64,000 bases of DNA, from positions 186,001 to 250,000 of the forward strand of contig JAUJOT010000001.1 of assembly GCA_030447505.1 (NCBI GenBank). The letters are read 5' to 3'. The notes below the pieces were generated by a model. The model was not told the origin of the DNA. It saw nothing but the letters and a program-made list of their open reading frames with translations, and made no database searches. The position numbers were made by a program, and so were the translations under genes. Below are positions 8,478 to 16,892 of this stretch, in pieces. The stretch's first letter is position 1, and every line of letters begins with the position of its first letter. Source of the stretch: Solirubrobacteraceae bacterium. GTDB lineage: Bacteria > Actinomycetota > Thermoleophilia > Solirubrobacterales > Solirubrobacteraceae.

Positions 8478-8819
8478 TCAGCCGATCCGGTCGCCCGGCT
8501 GCGAGCCCTCGTCGGGCTCGAGCAGCAGCACCGGATGATCGTCGGCGACCGCGCCGAGCACGAGCACCTCGGAGCGCACCGGGCCGATCTGGCGCGGGCG
8601 GAAGTTCACGACGGCGACGACGAGGCGGCCTTCGAGCTGCTCGCGCGCGTAGTTCGTGATCTGCGCCGACGAGCGCTTCTGGCCGATCTCGGGACCGAAG
8701 TCGATGCGCAGCTTCCACGCCGGCTTGCGCGCCTCAGGGAAGTCCTCCACGGCGACGATCCTGCCGACGCGCACGTCGATCTTCTCGAAGTCCGACCAGT
8801 CCGCCCACTCGATCGTCAT
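8478..8819 (-). CDS. csaA: CsaA-like tRNA-binding (OB-fold) chaperone
   Basis: A 113-residue single OB-fold domain of the tRNA-binding EMAP/Arc1p type, the size of Bacillus CsaA. The core DVRVGRIVAVEDFPEARKPA and the later SSAQIT and VVNFRPRQIGP segments are typical. CsaA dimers bind tRNA and have been described as export-associated chaperones. Its start codon overlaps the stop of the upstream membrane-protein gene as ATGA, so the two are probably translationally coupled. Confidence 0.88.
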   Translation of the reverse strand: MTIEWADWSDFEKIDVRVGRIVAVEDFPEARKPAWKLRIDFGPEIGQKRSSAQITNYAREQLEGRLVVAVVNFRPRQIGPVRSEVLVLGAVADDHPVLLLEPDEGSQPGDRIG

Positions 8820-9466
8820 GCCGTTCCTCCGTCGCGATCCTCGCCGAACCGAAACGACCGCAGCGGCGTCTTCAACGCTCCGTGGTTGCCGATCTCGGCG
8901 GCACTCGGCGTGCCCGCCACCGGGGTCGACGCGAGTTCGATCACGACGCCGCGGCGGCGCCCCTCAGGCGCCTGCTCGACGAGCAGGTAGTGGCGGCCGT
9001 AGAGCCGGCGAGCGCCGATCCGCGCGCGGAACGTCACCTCGTAGCCGATTGCGTTGTTGATCCGCGCGCGGCCCTCCGAGACGAACTCGAAGTCCCTGTA
9101 GCGCGTGCGGATGTCGCGCAGGTAGCCGTTGGCGTAGATCGGCAGCATCCCGCCGACCACGCCGCGATAGGCCGGCAGCTGCAGGTCACGGATCGCGTAG
9201 GAGTCCAGGAACAGGCCGCGCTCGCCGCGGTTGCGCAGCGCGACGAGCCTGCCGGGGCGCTCGACGCGTTCCCATTGCCCGCCGTAGACGAGGTTGAACG
9301 TCACCGGCTCGCGGACCAGGACGGGCGTCTCGTCGGCCCGGGCCGAGAGCGCGATCGTCGTCGCGCCGACGAGGACCAGCACCGCAACCGCGGCCGCGGC
9401 GACGCGCACGGCGGGCGAGCGGCGGGCGAGCAGCTGCGGGAGCGTCGGGCCGTACTCGGCCTTCAT
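8816..9466 (-). CDS. membrane-anchored protein of unknown function
   Basis: About 216 residues. One hydrophobic segment (VAAAAVAVLVLVGATTIAL) lies near residues 20-38 and is preceded by a short basic stretch. The rest would be outside the membrane. The outer domain contains VTFNLVYGGQWERVERPGR and a long beta-rich region, with no recognised motif. It shares a 4-base overlap with csaA. An ATG six codons earlier (9484) is an alternative start. I do not recognise the family. Confidence 0.72.
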   Translation of the reverse strand: MKAEYGPTLPQLLARRSPAVRVAAAAVAVLVLVGATTIALSARADETPVLVREPVTFNLVYGGQWERVERPGRLVALRNRGERGLFLDSYAIRDLQLPAYRGVVGGMLPIYANGYLRDIRTRYRDFEFVSEGRARINNAIGYEVTFRARIGARRLYGRHYLLVEQAPEGRRRGVVIELASTPVAGTPSAAEIGNHGALKTPLRSFRFGEDRDGGTA

Positions 9467-9591
9467 CACGGGCACCGGGCGCATTCTGACGCCCGCGACG
9501 ACGCGACGGATCGAGCGCGGCCAGCGGCGAAGCCGATCATGCGCGTCGTCGTCGCGCCGAGCGATCGCTCGCTGCGGCCCGCGCGCAGGCG

Positions 9592-9867
9592 TTACTCGCC
9601 GATCGAGAACATCGTCTCCAGGTCGTGCCTGGAGAAGGCCTCGAACGCCACCATCGTGTGGGTTCGCGCGACGCCGTGCATCGACGAGATCTGACCTGTC
9701 ACGACGCTCGCAAGATCCTCGTGCTGCTTGACGTGCACGATGCAGACGAAGTCCCACTCGCCGGTGACCGAGTAGGCCTCGCGGACGCCGTCGACTTCGG
9801 CAAGCGCTCCGCCGAGCGTCGACATGACGTCGCGCTCGGCCTCGACGAGCACGATCGCATGTGTCAC
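9592..9867 (-). CDS. stand-alone Lrp/AsnC ligand-binding (RAM) domain
   Basis: A 91-residue protein that consists only of the RAM (regulation of amino-acid metabolism) domain of Lrp/AsnC regulators: VDGVREAYSVTGEWDFVCIV then GVARTHTMVAFE. The DNA-binding helix-turn-helix is absent and there is no room for one upstream. Such proteins form dimers and octamers that bind amino acids and may modulate full-length Lrp partners. The ATG overlaps the stop of the preceding gene (ATGA), so it is the last gene of a three-gene operon with the next two features. Confidence 0.85.
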   Translation of the reverse strand: MTHAIVLVEAERDVMSTLGGALAEVDGVREAYSVTGEWDFVCIVHVKQHEDLASVVTGQISSMHGVARTHTMVAFEAFSRHDLETMFSIGE

Positions 9868-10211
9868 GCCTCGCTCCCTTCCGCGCCGTCGTTGCGGCGC
9901 GCGGCGAGCTCGCGCGCAAGCTCGAAGCCAACCGATACGCCGACGAGCATCCCCAGCCGGGTCTCCTCCTCGACGAGCGCCTGCACCGCCACGACGCGCT
10001 CGGACGGATCCTCCGTCCCGGCGGCGGCCTGCAGCTGCGCGTCGTGCGCCTGATCGAACCAGCCGCCCTGCTGCAGCGCCGCGCCGAGCACGCGCTGCAG
10101 GCCAGGCGCAGCGTGGGTCACGATCTCCTGCGCATGCCCGAAGCGCTCGGGGTCCGACAGCGCCTCGACGGCGGCGTCGACCTCCTCGGCGCTGTAGCGC
10201 CGCTGCGTCAT
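9864..10211 (-). CDS. uncharacterised 115-residue protein in RAM/rhomboid operon
   Basis: Begins MTQRRYSAEEVDAAVEAL. The first 50 residues have the spacing of a small helical bundle, and the middle is rich in alanine and glutamine. It has no signal peptide, membrane segment or metal motif and no family that I recognise. It is linked by 4-base ATGA overlaps to the pseudo-rhomboid upstream and the RAM-domain gene downstream, so it is almost certainly co-translated with both. Confidence 0.72.
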   Translation of the reverse strand: MTQRRYSAEEVDAAVEALSDPERFGHAQEIVTHAAPGLQRVLGAALQQGGWFDQAHDAQLQAAAGTEDPSERVVAVQALVEEETRLGMLVGVSVGFELARELAARRNDGAEGSEA

Positions 10212-11017
10212 GCCGGCGATCGCCGCACGGCCGCGTAGCCGAGCCCCGCGACGGCGCCGAATGCGGCGCCGAAGAGGCCGGCGATCGCGCTGCCCTGCGA
10301 CAGCAGCGGCACGAGCAGCAGCACGGCGGCGATCACGAGCACGCCGAGCAGGTCGCTGTCGTCCTCGTCGCCGCGGTGGCGGTCGAGCAGGACCGGGACG
10401 AGCCAGGCGCAGAGCAGGCCGAGGGCCGCGCCGTGGGAGCCGAACACGAGCGAGTTCGTGTCGACGGCGGCCGCCGCGGCAAGCGCGCCGGGACCGCAGA
10501 GCAAGAACAGCAGCACGACGGCGATCGGCCCCTGGCGGCGCTCGATCAGCCAGCCGAAGAGCCCGACGCCGAGGACGGCCGCGAACTGCGCCGCAACACC
10601 GTCGTTGAGCAGCGCGGCGGTGAAGAAGCGCCAGGGGTCGCCGCCGACCGCGGTGATCGCGAAGTCGGCGCGCACGTAGAACGCGAGCGACAGCCAGAGC
10701 CCGAACGACAGCGCGACGAGCGCCATCGTCGCGTACGGGCGCCGGTGCTCGTCGCCGCGGATCCCTGGGATCTCGCCGGTGCGCAGCTTGCCCAGGCGCT
10801 CGGCGGCCTTCGGCTGCTTGGGCTTCGCCTTGGACTGCCCGCGCTCTCGCCCGCCGACGCGTGGCCCGCGCTTGGGCGGCTTGACCGGCGCGTCGGGGCG
10901 CTCGATGCGCGGCGCGCGCTTGCGCAGCCGCGTACCGCAGTACGGGCACTCGGTGATGTACGGGCTGACCTCGGCCTGACAGTTCTTGCACACCACGAAG
11001 AGGTCGGGAGAGGACAT
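10208..11017 (-). CDS. zinc-ribbon rhomboid-like membrane protein lacking catalytic residues
   Basis: A 269-residue protein from the ATG at 11017. A zinc ribbon (C10, C13, C24, C27) is followed by a basic linker to residue 90 and then six or more membrane segments with the rhomboid pattern. DPWRFFTAAL matches the WR segment, but the serine-protease loop GxSG reads G-S-H195-G and the TM6 histidine region reads SAIAGLFG. Both members of the Ser-His dyad are therefore missing, so it should be a pseudoprotease that binds or sorts membrane partners. A TAGAAT box lies 9 bases before this ATG, which favours it over a TTG two codons earlier. Confidence 0.8.
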   Translation of the reverse strand: MSSPDLFVVCKNCQAEVSPYITECPYCGTRLRKRAPRIERPDAPVKPPKRGPRVGGRERGQSKAKPKQPKAAERLGKLRTGEIPGIRGDEHRRPYATMALVALSFGLWLSLAFYVRADFAITAVGGDPWRFFTAALLNDGVAAQFAAVLGVGLFGWLIERRQGPIAVVLLFLLCGPGALAAAAAVDTNSLVFGSHGAALGLLCAWLVPVLLDRHRGDEDDSDLLGVLVIAAVLLLVPLLSQGSAIAGLFGAAFGAVAGLGYAAVRRSPA

Positions 11018-11079: not shown

Positions 11080-12201
11080 CTACAGCGCCGTCGCGGCGAC
11101 GATCTCGGCCATGACCTCGTTGAGGTCGGTGTTCGCCTCGTAGACGACGCACTGGCGCGAGGCGCCGTTGCCGCGCTCGAGAAGATCGCGGATGCCGTCC
11201 AGCGCATCGCCGCCGCCGAGTTGCTGGGCATGCGGCTCGAGGCGCCCGAGCAGGCGCTTCGTGAGCGCCTTCGTCGTGACGCGCTCGCTGGAGGGCAGGT
11301 CGACGATCTCGCCGTCGAGCCCGTGCCGCGCGGCGAGCCACTTGTTCTCGTCGAGCATCTGCCAGGGATACTCCGCGAGCCTCTTGCCGTCGTCGAAGTG
11401 CTCGGCGAGCTCGTGAACCATCGCCTGGATGAGCGACGTCAGGGCGATCGTGTGCTCCAGGCGCGTCTGCGAGTCGCAGACGCGGATCTCGACGGTACCG
11501 AGGTTCGGGTGCGGGCGGACGTCGTACCAGAGGTACGTGTAGTCCTCCATCACGCCGCTTGCGACCATGAACGCGACCTGCCGCTTCCAGTCCTCCCAGT
11601 CCTCGTAGGCCGGCGGCATGCCGACGCGCGGAAAGGCACGGAAGATCGGCGTGCGAGTCGACAGCAGCCCCGTGCGGTCGCCGCGCCAGAACGGCGAGTT
11701 GGCGCTCAGCGCCAGCAGCACCGGGACGTGTACCCGCATGCCGTTGGCGACGTGAATGGCCTTGTCGGGGTCGTCGACCCCGACGTGGACGTGCATCCCG
11801 AAGATCAGCTCCTGGCGGGCGACGAAGCGCAGTGCCGAGATCAGGTCGCGGTAGCGCGGGCGCGCGACGATCCGCTGGTGCTCCCACATCGCGAACGGGT
11901 GCGTGCCGGCGGAGCCGATCGCGAGGCCGCGCGCGGCGGCCGTCTCGCGCACGTTCTGGCGCAGCGAGCGCAGCTGCTCGGCCGCCTCGCCGGTGTCCGC
12001 GCACGGCTTCGTCGCGATCTCGAGCACGGACTCCATCAGCTCGGGCTTGATCTCGCCGTCCTCGCGCTCGACGTTCGACGCGCCGGCGTCCTCGAGCAGC
12101 GACTCGATCGCGTTGACGAGCGCGTAGCTCTTCGCGTCGACGATCATCAACTCCTCCTCGACGCCGACCGTGTAGCTCGGCCCGCTGAAGTTCGCGCGCA
12201 T
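11080..12201 (-). CDS. GCS2-type carboxylate-amine ligase (YbdK family glutamate-cysteine ligase)
   Basis: A 373-residue ATP-dependent ligase of the glutamate-cysteine ligase family 2. It opens with YTVGVEEELMIVD, and FGMHVHVGV lies in the middle; WYDVRPHPNLGTVEIRVCD is the metal and substrate core. Members make gamma-glutamyl-cysteine or related amides (YbdK, EgtA-like). The exact substrate cannot be fixed from sequence. The ATG at 12201 is supported by a TACGCT box 8 bases upstream; longer in-frame starts would extend into low-complexity sequence. Confidence 0.87.
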   Translation of the reverse strand: MRANFSGPSYTVGVEEELMIVDAKSYALVNAIESLLEDAGASNVEREDGEIKPELMESVLEIATKPCADTGEAAEQLRSLRQNVRETAAARGLAIGSAGTHPFAMWEHQRIVARPRYRDLISALRFVARQELIFGMHVHVGVDDPDKAIHVANGMRVHVPVLLALSANSPFWRGDRTGLLSTRTPIFRAFPRVGMPPAYEDWEDWKRQVAFMVASGVMEDYTYLWYDVRPHPNLGTVEIRVCDSQTRLEHTIALTSLIQAMVHELAEHFDDGKRLAEYPWQMLDENKWLAARHGLDGEIVDLPSSERVTTKALTKRLLGRLEPHAQQLGGGDALDGIRDLLERGNGASRQCVVYEANTDLNEVMAEIVAATAL

Positions 12202-12209
12202 CGCGCCGG

Positions 12210-12215
12210 AGCGTA
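12210..12215 (-). promoter_or_regulatory. -10 box of the GCS2 ligase gene
   Basis: TACGCT on the minus strand, with 8 bases to the ATG. Confidence 0.5.
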
Positions 12216-12354
12216 CCCGTAGCGCGCTGCTCGCCATCCTCGCGCGCCCGCCGTCCAGGATCGCCTGCTGTCCGGCGAAGTCACGATCGCGCAGCAGCAA
12301 GCGCGTGTCTGCGCCGGTTCTGCAACGCGGCATGCGTGACGCCGTGGCTGCCCC

Positions 12355-12360
12355 TACGGT
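12355..12360 (+). promoter_or_regulatory. -10 box of the secreted nuclease gene
   Basis: TACGGT, with 8 bases to the ATG at 12369. Confidence 0.5.
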
Positions 12361-12368
12361 TGGGCGCC

Positions 12369-12881
12369 ATGTCCCCGCGCCGCCTGATCGTCCTGCTGCT
12401 CGTCGGCGCTGCCGGCGCGGGCGCTGCGGACGCAGGCGGCCTGCTCGAGTCCGGGGCGGACGAGCAAGCCGCCGCCGGCGTCGTCGGCCGCGTCGTGCGG
12501 GCGATCGACGGCGACACGATCGACGTGCAGATCGGCTCGGACCGCGAGAAGGTGCGCTACATCGGCGTCGACACGCCCGAGACCAGGCACCCGACGAAGG
12601 GCGTGCAGTGCTACGGCCACAAGGCTTCGGAGTTCAACGCGCAGCTCGTCGCCGACGAGCAGGTGCGGCTCGAGCGTGACGTCGGGGAGCGCGACCGCTA
12701 CGGGCGCCTGCTGGCCTACGTCCACCGCGTCCGCGACGGGCTGTTCGTCAATGCCGAGCTGGCTCGCCTGGGCTACGCCCAGCCGCTGTCGATCCCGCCC
12801 GACGTGCGCTACGCCGACCGCTTCGCCGAGCTCGCGCGGGAGGCCCGCGAGCATGGCCGCGGACTGTGGTCGGCATGCTGA
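12369..12881 (+). CDS. exported staphylococcal-nuclease-type endonuclease
   Basis: A 170-residue protein. An N-terminal hydrophobic export or anchor segment ([17 protein letters not shown]) is followed by the SNase OB-fold. Catalytic positions of micrococcal nuclease are conserved: DGDT at 47-50, R63 and D68/E71 in RYIGVDTPE, and R113 in RYGRLLAYV. It should cleave DNA and RNA in a calcium-dependent way outside the cytoplasm. The ATG at 12369 was chosen for the signal peptide and for the -10 box 8 bases upstream. Confidence 0.87.
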   Translation: MSPRRLIVLLLVGAAGAGAADAGGLLESGADEQAAAGVVGRVVRAIDGDTIDVQIGSDREKVRYIGVDTPETRHPTKGVQCYGHKASEFNAQLVADEQVRLERDVGERDRYGRLLAYVHRVRDGLFVNAELARLGYAQPLSIPPDVRYADRFAELAREAREHGRGLWSAC

Positions 12882-12914
12882 GCGGCGGCGATGTCGGCTA
12901 ACCTCCCGTAACAG

Positions 12915-13160
12915 ATGGCAACCAGGATGCGCCAGTCGCTCGACGAGTTCGAACGAGCCTTCGTCGAGGAGACCCACACGGACCGCGTGCGCCGCGAATC
13001 GCTGCGACGCAAGGCGGTCCTGCGATCACGACAACGCAGCCTGGAGAAGGTTCACAAGCGGGCCACGGCGCGCTTCATCATGCTCGTGCTGATGATCGTC
13101 GCGACGGCCGTCATCGTGACGATCGCGATGTTCCAGACGCTCGCCTACGTGATGGGATAG
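12915..13160 (+). CDS. small membrane protein with basic helical N terminus
   Basis: An 81-residue protein. Residues 1-50 are highly charged and predicted helical (RRESLRRKAVLRSRQR). One C-terminal membrane segment spans about 54-78 (MLVLMIVATAVIVTIAMF). Function unknown; the layout is that of a tail-anchored cytoplasmic coiled helix. A TAACCT box ends 10 bases upstream of the ATG. The gene is convergent with csrA. Confidence 0.7.
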   Translation: MATRMRQSLDEFERAFVEETHTDRVRRESLRRKAVLRSRQRSLEKVHKRATARFIMLVLMIVATAVIVTIAMFQTLAYVMG

Positions 13161-13162
13161 CC

Positions 13163-13185
13163 GGGCGCGCGCACCGCGGCGCCCC
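13163..13185. terminator. GC-rich hairpin between convergent genes
   Basis: GGGCGC pairs with GCGCCC across a short loop in the 25-base gap between the small membrane protein gene and csrA. Confidence 0.4.
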
Positions 13186-13407
13186 CTACGAACTCAGCTT
13201 GCGCAGGGCCGCATCGACCTCGCGACCGGCCGTGACCTGGCCGCGCTCGGCCTGGATCTCGAGATAGACCTCCTTGCGGAAGACCGGAATGTCTCGAGGG
13301 GCCTGGATGCCGATCCGGACCTTTTCGCCCATGATCGACAAGACCGATATCTCGATCTCGTCCCCGATCATGATGCTCTGGTTGGACTTGCGTGTCAGTA
13401 CCAGCAT
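13186..13407 (-). CDS. csrA: carbon storage regulator CsrA
   Basis: A 73-residue RNA-binding dimer that represses translation by covering GGA-containing leaders. [20 protein letters not shown] and the [16 protein letters not shown] region with its RNA-contacting arginine are fully conserved. Unlike most genes here it has a strong Shine-Dalgarno sequence (GAGGAGG) 11 bases before the ATG; this GGA could also serve as a self-binding site. No flagellar genes or fliW, its usual partners in Gram-positive bacteria, are in the window. Confidence 0.95.
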
Positions 13408-13544
13408 GGAAAGGCCACCCTCCTCGTCGCCGCGAGAACTCAAGCAGGTTGACAGGGCAAACACAACCGGCGCAGAGGGTCGCCCATCATCGCGTCTTCT
13501 CGTGCCAGATAGGCGATGCGGCCCGTTCTTATAAGGTCCGCGCC

Positions 13545-14129
13545 ATGGCACGACGCTCATTGCGCCCTCATCTCAACCAGATCCGCGGTTGGGTCCGACA
13601 GGGCCGCACCGATGCCTGGATCGCTCACCAGCTCGAGGCGACGGTCCAGCAGATCGAGACCTTCAAGAAGGACAACGACCTCACGCCGGCCGACCCCGAG
13701 AACGGGGAGGCGGTGGCGGACTTCGACGACGAGATCGACCTGCGCGCCGAGGATGACGCGCTCGTCGCCGCCGAGCTCGAGGCGGCAGAGGTCAAACGCG
13801 CCGAGGAGGAGGCCGCGCGCCTCGCCGAGGAGGAAGCCGAGAAGCTGCGCAGGGCCGAGGCGGGCGAGGACGGGGCCGAGGCCGACGCAAGCGCAAAGCC
13901 GGCATCGCGCCGGCGCGGTCGGCGCGGCGGGCGCGGGCGCTCACGCGGCTCGAGCGTCCTCGAGGGAACCTTCGATCACGGCGAGGAGGGCTACGGGCTG
14001 TGGCTCGACCCGGCCGTCGCCGACAACGCCGTCTATGCCGAGCACTGGGCCGGTCACCGCCCCGTCGAGGTCACGGTCGAGGAAGACCAGATCGTGATCC
14101 GACGCTCGGGCACCGACGTCGAGGACTGA
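13545..14129 (+). CDS. uncharacterised protein with HTH-like N terminus, acidic coil and arginine/glycine-rich linker
   Basis: A 194-residue protein. Residues 1-45 ([20 protein letters not shown]) look like a small helix-turn-helix. Residues 60-115 are a Glu/Ala-rich coiled helix. Residues 120-140 form a basic [10 protein letters not shown] stretch. The last 50 residues form a conserved beta-rich module ([18 protein letters not shown]). The mix suggests a nucleic-acid-associated protein; function unknown. TAAGGT, 7 bases upstream of the ATG, suggests a leaderless message. It is divergent from csrA. Confidence 0.75.
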
Positions 14130-14185
14130 CGGCCGCCGGCGGGCACGCCGCGCTGTTGCGGCCGGCTCGCCGCCGGCGCGAGCGC

Positions 14186-14512
14186 CTACGGCTCCGTGCG
14201 CCGGCCGCCGGCGAAGTCGCGCGCGTCGCGCAGGTAGCGCAGGAACGCGGCGTCGGCGACCGTGCGCGGGTCCCAAGCCCAGGGCGCCTCGGGCGCGACC
14301 GCGGCGGCCAGGTCGGTGCACCAGTCCGTCCCGCGCTCGTACAGCTCGGCGAGCTCGTCGGCCGTGAACGTGCCGCCCAGGCGCCTGCGCAGCTCGGCCT
14401 CGATCCGCGTCACGACGTCCTCGAGCGCCGCGCGATGCTCGAGTGGCGCGCCGGCCAACCGCCGCTCGCCTTCGCGCCACTGACCGAGCGCTGTCTCGAA
14501 GCTCGTCGCCAC
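14186..14512 (-). CDS. conserved actinobacterial hypothetical protein
   Basis: A 108-residue, mostly helical protein with no membrane segment and no motif that I recognise. It contains FTADELAELYERGTDWC and a C-terminal YLRDARDF stretch. The GTG start has TAGCCT 8 bases upstream. It lies downstream of divIC, in the slot that holds a DUF501 gene in mycobacteria, but it does not look like DUF501. Confidence 0.7.
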   Translation of the reverse strand: MATSFETALGQWREGERRLAGAPLEHRAALEDVVTRIEAELRRRLGGTFTADELAELYERGTDWCTDLAAAVAPEAPWAWDPRTVADAAFLRYLRDARDFAGGRRTEP

Positions 14513-14546
14513 CGGCGGGCAGGCTACCCGCCGGCGCGAGGCCGCA

Positions 14547-14846
14547 CTACCTGCCGACGGGCAGCCCGCGGATCACGTAGGCGCGCTCGTCGCGCTTGAC
14601 CATCCCGAGGCGCCGCGCCTCGGTCTCGATGCTGCTTGCGGCGCGCAGCTCGCGCGAGCGCTTGACGAGCTGCGAGTGCTCGCGCTGCAGCTCCGAGACC
14701 TCGGCGCGCTTCGTGCGCGCCTCCTGCCATGTCGAGAGGTACGTGCGCAGCGGGTTGATGTAGAGGTAGATCAGCAGCAGCCCGACGAGCAGCAGCGCGA
14801 GCCGACCGATCCGGTCCCAGCGCACGTGCGGCGCGAAGTCGGTCAT
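14547..14846 (-). CDS. divIC: septum formation initiator DivIC/FtsB
   Basis: A 99-residue bitopic division protein. A short cytoplasmic N terminus is followed by one membrane segment (LALLLVGLLLIYLYI, about residues 15-30), a heptad coiled coil (residues 38-70) and the conserved EARRLGMVKRDE end. It would join FtsL and FtsQ in the divisome. Position immediately downstream of eno is conserved across actinobacteria. Confidence 0.88.
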   Translation of the reverse strand: MTDFAPHVRWDRIGRLALLLVGLLLIYLYINPLRTYLSTWQEARTKRAEVSELQREHSQLVKRSRELRAASSIETEARRLGMVKRDERAYVIRGLPVGR

Positions 14847-14914
14847 CGCTCGGGGTTCGGCTCGCGCGCCTCGTCTCCTCCCGCTGGTCGCGCCCGCCCC
14901 GGCCGGCCCTGCGT

Positions 14915-16892
<1,978 letters not shown>

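What the first reader, a model, noticed from the sequence alone, without database searches (positions are those of the whole stretch)
9592..11017. Coupled operon of a dead rhomboid, an unknown 115-residue protein and a DNA-binding-less Lrp domain
All three genes are joined by ATGA overlaps. The rhomboid has a zinc ribbon and membrane core but histidine at the catalytic serine (residue 195) and no TM6 histidine. The last protein is a ligand-binding RAM domain without HTH. Three parts that each lost the activity their family is named for suggest a membrane-linked amino-acid sensing complex with no described precedent that I know of.
Basis: partly seen in the sequence, partly recalled or inferred. 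Interest (0 to 1): 0.5.

Follow-up and report, generated by a model that had tools for sequence, protein, structure and literature searches.

The report
Order-wide dead rhomboid gene cluster
Bacteria of one order keep a rhomboid membrane protein that has lost its cutting site but not its shape or its zinc finger, usually beside the same few genes, which suggests it works as a membrane helper rather than as an enzyme.

Summary
The three genes are real and overlap, and the rhomboid is dead: His sits at the catalytic serine, Gly at the TM6 histidine. This is order-wide, not local decay. Its full-length relatives occur in 60 of 60 Solirubrobacterales genomes sampled. None of 85 distinct sequences has the dyad motif; 28 of 30 other rhomboids from 16 genomes of the order do. 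The ribbon cysteines are kept in 84 of 84 sequences that reach the N-terminus. The predicted fold is GlpG-like.

The trio is not the conserved unit. The commonest layout is rhomboid, 115-aa protein, UPF0173 metallo-hydrolase, stand-alone RAM protein. The 115-aa gene adjoins the hydrolase in 45 of 45 genomes holding both. The window's genus lacks the hydrolase; the exact trio is in 3 of 60 genomes, all of that genus. In other families of the order the RAM gene is in 2 of 26 genomes, on other contigs. Stand-alone RAM proteins are a known kind.

Best reading: a zinc-ribbon rhomboid pseudoprotease acting as a membrane client adaptor, like the protease-independent role of Bacillus YqgP. That function is inferred. 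The amino-acid-sensing complex is not supported.

The parts
10208..11017 (-). Zinc-ribbon pseudorhomboid, 269 aa: CxxC...CxxC ribbon (Cys10, 13, 24, 27), basic linker, six predicted TM helices; His195 at the serine position, Gly247 at the TM6 His position
10208..10211 (-). ATGA overlap, rhomboid stop and start of the 115-aa gene
9864..10211 (-). 115-aa all-helical protein without a known family; found in the order only in the samples searched; next to a UPF0173 hydrolase gene in 45 of 45 genomes that hold both
9864..9867 (-). GTGA overlap, stop of the 115-aa gene and GTG start of the RAM gene; in most relatives a UPF0173 hydrolase gene lies at this place
9592..9867 (-). Stand-alone RAM (Lrp/AsnC ligand-binding) protein, 91 aa, no HTH
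11080..12333 (-). GCS2 (glutamate-cysteine ligase family 2) gene, 62 nt upstream on the same strand; the coordinates are the longest ORF, the true start is probably inside it

Best explanation
The rhomboid is a member of a Solirubrobacterales-wide family of non-proteolytic, zinc-ribbon rhomboid pseudoproteases. It heads a gene cluster whose usual content is pseudorhomboid, a 115-aa helical orphan protein, a UPF0173 metal-dependent hydrolase and, in the window's family, a stand-alone RAM protein. Most likely mechanism: the six-helix core binds membrane clients in the former active-site cleft without cutting them, and the cytosolic zinc ribbon docks a soluble partner that acts on them, as in the protease-independent adaptor role of Bacillus subtilis YqgP for FtsH. 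Shown: fold prediction, absence of the dyad, kept cysteines, purifying selection, gene linkage. Inferred: zinc binding, cytosolic side, client binding, partner, and any joint work with the downstream genes.
For: Rhomboid relatives: 60 of 60 order genomes at 175-374 bits; best in the 140 other genomes of the class 58 bits. Serine column in 85 distinct sequences: Asn 62, Pro 5, His 4, Ser 3, Ala 3, Gly 2, Gln 2, Val 2, Ile 1, Leu 1; the TM6 His column and the column of the oxyanion Asn hold no His and no Asn respectively. Dyad motif in 0 of 85, against 28 of 30 other rhomboids of the same order. Ribbon Cys in 84 of 84. Model pLDDT 83, matches GlpG with TM-score 0.74 to 0.77 by target length. dN/dS well under 1. 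Linkage: 115-aa gene next to hydrolase 45 of 45, rhomboid within 200 nt of the 115-aa gene 36 of 53. YqgP: a dead mutant still serves FtsH as adaptor, and its metal-binding N-terminal domain is needed (PMC7231995, passages).
Against: No experiment on any of these proteins was found. The adaptor role is an analogy; FtsH or another partner was not looked for near the gene. The N-terminal part of the model is weak (pLDDT 49-80 over residues 1-90), and no single Pfam ribbon model passes its cut-off. The rhomboid is unlinked to the 115-aa gene in 4 of 53 genomes (2 perhaps through contig breaks) and separated by 0.2-6 kb, often with a gene on the other strand, in 13 of 53. Two of the 30 control rhomboids also lack the motif.
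Confidence: 0.4

Rival explanations
1. Gene-order inertia. The pseudorhomboid, the 115-aa/hydrolase pair and the RAM protein have separate functions and share only an operon.
For: Members are lost separately: rhomboid-RAM (G014, G024), rhomboid-hydrolase (G042), rhomboid-hydrolase-RAM (G050), rhomboid alone (3 genomes). The wider block (enolase, FtsB-like, CsrA, nuclease, GCS2) is kept around it as well.
Against: The survivors stay side by side after losses, and the pair 115-aa/hydrolase is never split in 45 genomes.
Confidence: 0.3
2. iRhom-like regulator: the pseudorhomboid binds or competes for the clients of the active rhomboids of the same cell.
For: All 16 genomes tested hold 2-5 rhomboid-domain genes, the window's own genome 4; of the 30 read, 28 have an intact dyad motif, two of them from the window's genome.
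Against: The large luminal domain of iRhoms is absent (about 30 residues between TM1 and TM2 in the model), and no linkage to an active rhomboid was seen or looked for.
Confidence: 0.15
3. The reader's membrane-linked amino-acid sensing complex of the three products.
For: RAM proteins can bind amino acids (PMC2995911, passages), and in the window's family the RAM gene is attached to the cluster in all 28 genomes that have it.
Against: The rhomboid and the 115-aa gene persist without the RAM gene in most of the order; no hydrolase-free complex is conserved outside the genus.
Confidence: 0.08
4. A decaying pseudogene or sequencing artefact.
For: Loss of catalytic residues.
Against: Open frame and fold kept in 60 of 60 genomes; purifying selection.
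Confidence: 0.01

Closest known systems
Bacterial rhomboid proteases GlpG (PDB 2nr9, 2xov)
   Same: Predicted six-helix fold, TM-score 0.74 to 0.77 by target length; conserved W129, the ExRxG stretch and TM6 glycines
   Different: No Ser-His dyad, no oxyanion Asn; an added N-terminal zinc ribbon
Bacillus subtilis YqgP (GluP)
   Same: Rhomboid with a cytosolic metal-binding N-terminal domain; has a protease-independent adaptor role (PMC7231995, passages)
   Different: YqgP is an active protease with another N-terminal fold and a C-terminal TPR domain; this one is dead throughout the order
Eukaryotic rhomboid pseudoproteases (iRhoms, Derlins)
   Same: Rhomboid fold without the dyad; the family profile also finds iRhom2 (E 0.0037)
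   Different: No iRhom homology domain; bacterial; zinc ribbon at the N-terminus
Stand-alone RAM proteins (PDB 2djw of Thermus, archaeal DM1)
   Same: RAM domain only; full-length match to 2djw, E 2e-16
   Different: Gene context only
UPF0173 hydrolases (PDB 7e3v, 3x2x, 6hrg)
   Same: The gene that relatives hold between the 115-aa and RAM genes
   Different: Absent from the window's genome at the thresholds used

Membership tests
Rhomboid superfamily (fold) | Six-helix rhomboid core | tested here: met
   Pfam Rhomboid 46.4 bits against cut-off 22.6; model and GlpG match
Rhomboid proteases | Catalytic Ser in GxSG | tested here: not met
   His195 here; Ser in 3 of 85 relatives, none of which has the TM6 His
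Rhomboid proteases | Catalytic His in TM6 | tested here: not met
   Gly247; no His in that column in 85 sequences; the one His found in TM6, in L048, lies four columns earlier
Rhomboid pseudoproteases | Rhomboid fold without the dyad, under selection | tested here: met
Rhomboid pseudoproteases | Binds clients or partners | not testable with these tools
   needs experiments
iRhoms | Large iRhom homology domain after TM1 | tested here: not met
   About 30 residues between TM1 (95-110) and TM2 (141-162) in the model
YqgP-type adaptor | Cytosolic N-terminal metal-binding domain | tested here: inconclusive
   Four ribbon Cys conserved; metal binding and sidedness not tested
Stand-alone RAM proteins | RAM domain without HTH | tested here: met
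   91 aa in all
Stand-alone RAM proteins | Amino-acid ligand and oligomer change | not testable with these tools
   needs binding assays
UPF0173 (gene of relatives) | Profile match and HxHxDH metal motif | tested here: met
   E 1e-67 to 7e3v; H49, H51, D53, H54, H112, D141 and H191 invariant in 24 sequences
Com_YlbF (for the 115-aa protein) | Profile similarity to the family | tested here: inconclusive
   Only E 0.12 to YheA 2oee over 38 positions; Pfam scan of 41 members does not list the family

The most novel reading that the evidence does not exclude
A natural bacterial counterpart of Derlins and iRhoms: a clade-wide zinc-ribbon pseudorhomboid that recognises membrane clients and hands them to a soluble machine, with the clade-specific 115-aa protein and its UPF0173 hydrolase partner as cytosolic helpers, the RAM protein being a later addition in one family.
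Probability: 0.22. Interest if true: 0.7.

Novelty: new variant of a known kind. Interest (0 to 1): 0.43.

Why it matters
Rhomboid pseudoproteases are best known from eukaryotes; for bacteria the adaptor role was shown with a protease (YqgP) that also works when its serine is mutated. A family that gave up catalysis throughout an order, while active rhomboids remain in the same cells, would be a natural test of what the rhomboid fold does without cutting. It also gives the order-specific 115-aa protein a first handle: its constant neighbour is a metallo-hydrolase.

Tried and rejected
Rejected: an intact dyad elsewhere in the window's rhomboid (motif search 0 of 85); pseudogene decay; defence or phage origin (PADLOC no match, PHROGs only weak ribbon matches).

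Led nowhere: Foldseek and VIA-align for the 115-aa model gave no match above what helical bundles commonly give (best Foldseek E 0.57; best VIA Z 6.0 over 68 residues). PF06133 in the own genome gave nothing. The consensus promoter and terminator scan found none. UPF0173 loci of six genomes outside the order showed no one neighbour common to all six; two of one family share theirs (by eye). The 'X' rows of the dN/dS table were taken in a wrong frame and are not used. The first motif check picked wrong frames for part of the loci and was replaced. The list of clade-specific proteins in PMC6544083 (passages and section 11) gives accessions and lengths only; I could not tell whether the 115-aa protein or the rhomboid is in it. 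Paper searches on bacterial or prokaryotic rhomboid pseudoproteases and on rhomboids of this clade listed no report of this family; most subscription papers are not held.

Full report
Observation. Three minus-strand genes lie at 9592-11017: a 269-aa rhomboid, a 115-aa protein and a 91-aa RAM protein. The stop of the first and the start of the second form ATGA; the next junction is GTGA. A GCS2 ligase gene ends 62 nt upstream on the same strand, so it may belong to the same transcript. The rhomboid carries a CxxC-CxxC ribbon at its N-terminus and a Pfam Rhomboid domain.

The rhomboid is dead, order-wide. A profile of the family aligns the GlpG serine with residue 195 and the GlpG TM6 histidine with residue 247; here they are His and Gly. 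I gathered 93 sequences and kept 85 after dropping those with the same last 150 residues. At column 195 these hold Asn 62, Pro 5, His 4, Ser 3, Ala 3, Gly 2, Gln 2, Val 2, Ile 1, Leu 1. His is found in the window, L032 and L033 (same genus) and L070, the named record closest to the window. Column 247 holds no His, and column 147, where the profile puts the oxyanion Asn, no Asn (the roles of these GlpG residues are recalled). One sequence (L048) has a TM6 His four columns away from the catalytic place, with Asn at 195. A motif search for Ser and His at rhomboid spacing found 0 of 85, and 28 of 30 among other rhomboid ORFs of the same order. Those 30 are the ones given loci out of the listed matches of 16 genomes and lean towards high-scoring ones; L197 has the Ser motif only and L198 neither. 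The ribbon cysteines are present in 84 of 84, one further sequence being cut at its N-terminus.

Fold. The AlphaFold2 model of the rhomboid (36 sequences, mean pLDDT 83, weak over residues 1-90) has six long helices and matches GlpG structures first (2nr9 E 3e-4; TM-score 0.74 to 0.77 by target length for many). iRhoms come lower, with E 0.05 or worse. The 115-aa protein is predicted as four helices with pLDDT 90 and matches no solved fold convincingly.

Distribution. In 200 genomes of the class, 60 of them of the window's order, the rhomboid family is found in 60 of 60 at 175-374 bits; the best score in the 140 others is 58 bits. The 115-aa protein is in 53 of 60 and 0 of 140, and in a phylum sample in 7 of 246, all of this order. 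The UPF0173 hydrolase (E up to 1e-30) is in 47 of 60 and in 64 of 140, there at 247 bits or less. The RAM protein (E up to 1e-10) is in 28 of 34 genomes of the window's family, 2 of 26 of the rest of the order, and 15 of 140. The named loci of the 115-aa protein are Solirubrobacterales or Thermoleophilia records, among them Conexibacter, Solirubrobacter and Patulibacter, besides a few labelled only Actinomycetota and one labelled Bifidobacterium.

The real unit. Comparing coordinates: rhomboid, 115-aa, hydrolase, RAM contiguous in 18 of 60 genomes; the same without RAM in 14; the rest are variants with gaps or losses. The 115-aa gene lies directly upstream of the hydrolase gene in 45 of 45 genomes that hold both, and the hydrolase directly upstream of the RAM gene in 23 of 25. 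The rhomboid is within 200 nt of the 115-aa gene in 36 of 53, within 6 kb in 13, and not so placed in 4. In 8 of 10 loci with a longer gap that I read, the gap holds an opposite-strand gene that reads like selD (recognised by eye). The exact trio is seen in 3 of 60, all of the window's genus. Searches of the window's genome (E up to 1e-3) and of three genus genomes including it found no UPF0173 gene. So the trio is best read as the quartet minus its only predicted enzyme. Elsewhere other inner genes are missing while the rest stay adjacent: rhomboid-RAM (G014, G024), rhomboid-hydrolase (G042), rhomboid-hydrolase-RAM (G050).

Selection. Within the genus, Nei-Gojobori dN/dS is 0.28, 0.33, 0.43, 0.31 for the rhomboid, 0.14, 0.31, 0.34, 0.26 for the 115-aa protein and 0.10, 0.08, 0.08, 0.13 for the RAM protein (L003, L004, L032, L070; the last RAM value rests on 29 codons).

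What it most likely does. All the shown facts say that a membrane protein of rhomboid fold is kept without catalysis, with a kept metal ribbon. Among described roles of dead rhomboids, client binding and hand-over fits best. YqgP of B. subtilis does this for FtsH even when its serine is mutated, and needs its metal-binding N-terminal domain for it (PMC7231995, passages). A 2025 review places pseudoproteases mainly in protein quality control (PMC12615303, passages). Whether the ribbon binds zinc, faces the cytosol, and what it docks are inference. Since active rhomboids are present in the same genomes, a regulator of these is a serious rival. The 115-aa protein is most plausibly the partner of the hydrolase, from constant adjacency alone; but it persists without the hydrolase in 8 of the 53 genomes that have it, the window's among them.

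The RAM protein. It matches a stand-alone RAM protein of Thermus along its whole length (2djw, E 2e-16). Such proteins bind amino acids and can form mixed octamers with full-length Lrp proteins in archaea; their role was called unclear in 2010 (PMC2995911, passages). There is nothing unusual in the lack of a HTH.

Novelty. I found no description of a bacterial family of natural rhomboid pseudoproteases in the searches; the library is partial. I call it a new variant of a known kind.

Noticed in passing
L035, L039, L045, L047, L049, L051, L059, L061 between rhomboid and 115-aa gene: An opposite-strand gene that reads like selD (selenophosphate synthase) lies in the gap in 8 of 10 loci read; recognised by eye only.
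   Followed up: no
L043, between rhomboid and 115-aa gene: A gene that reads like a release-factor-3-type translational GTPase is inserted there (by eye).
   Followed up: no
L104: A record titled Bifidobacterium breve MAG holds a Solirubrobacterales-type cluster; the label is probably wrong.
   Followed up: no
L197, L198: Two other rhomboid-domain ORFs of the order fail the dyad motif test, one in part, one wholly.
   Followed up: no
window 8816-9520: Next gene downstream, without a Pfam family, with relatives beside the cluster in many genera.
   Followed up: partly
window 11080-16582 and relatives: The block enolase, FtsB-like, CsrA, nuclease, GCS2 upstream of the rhomboid is kept in order through much of the order.
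   Followed up: partly
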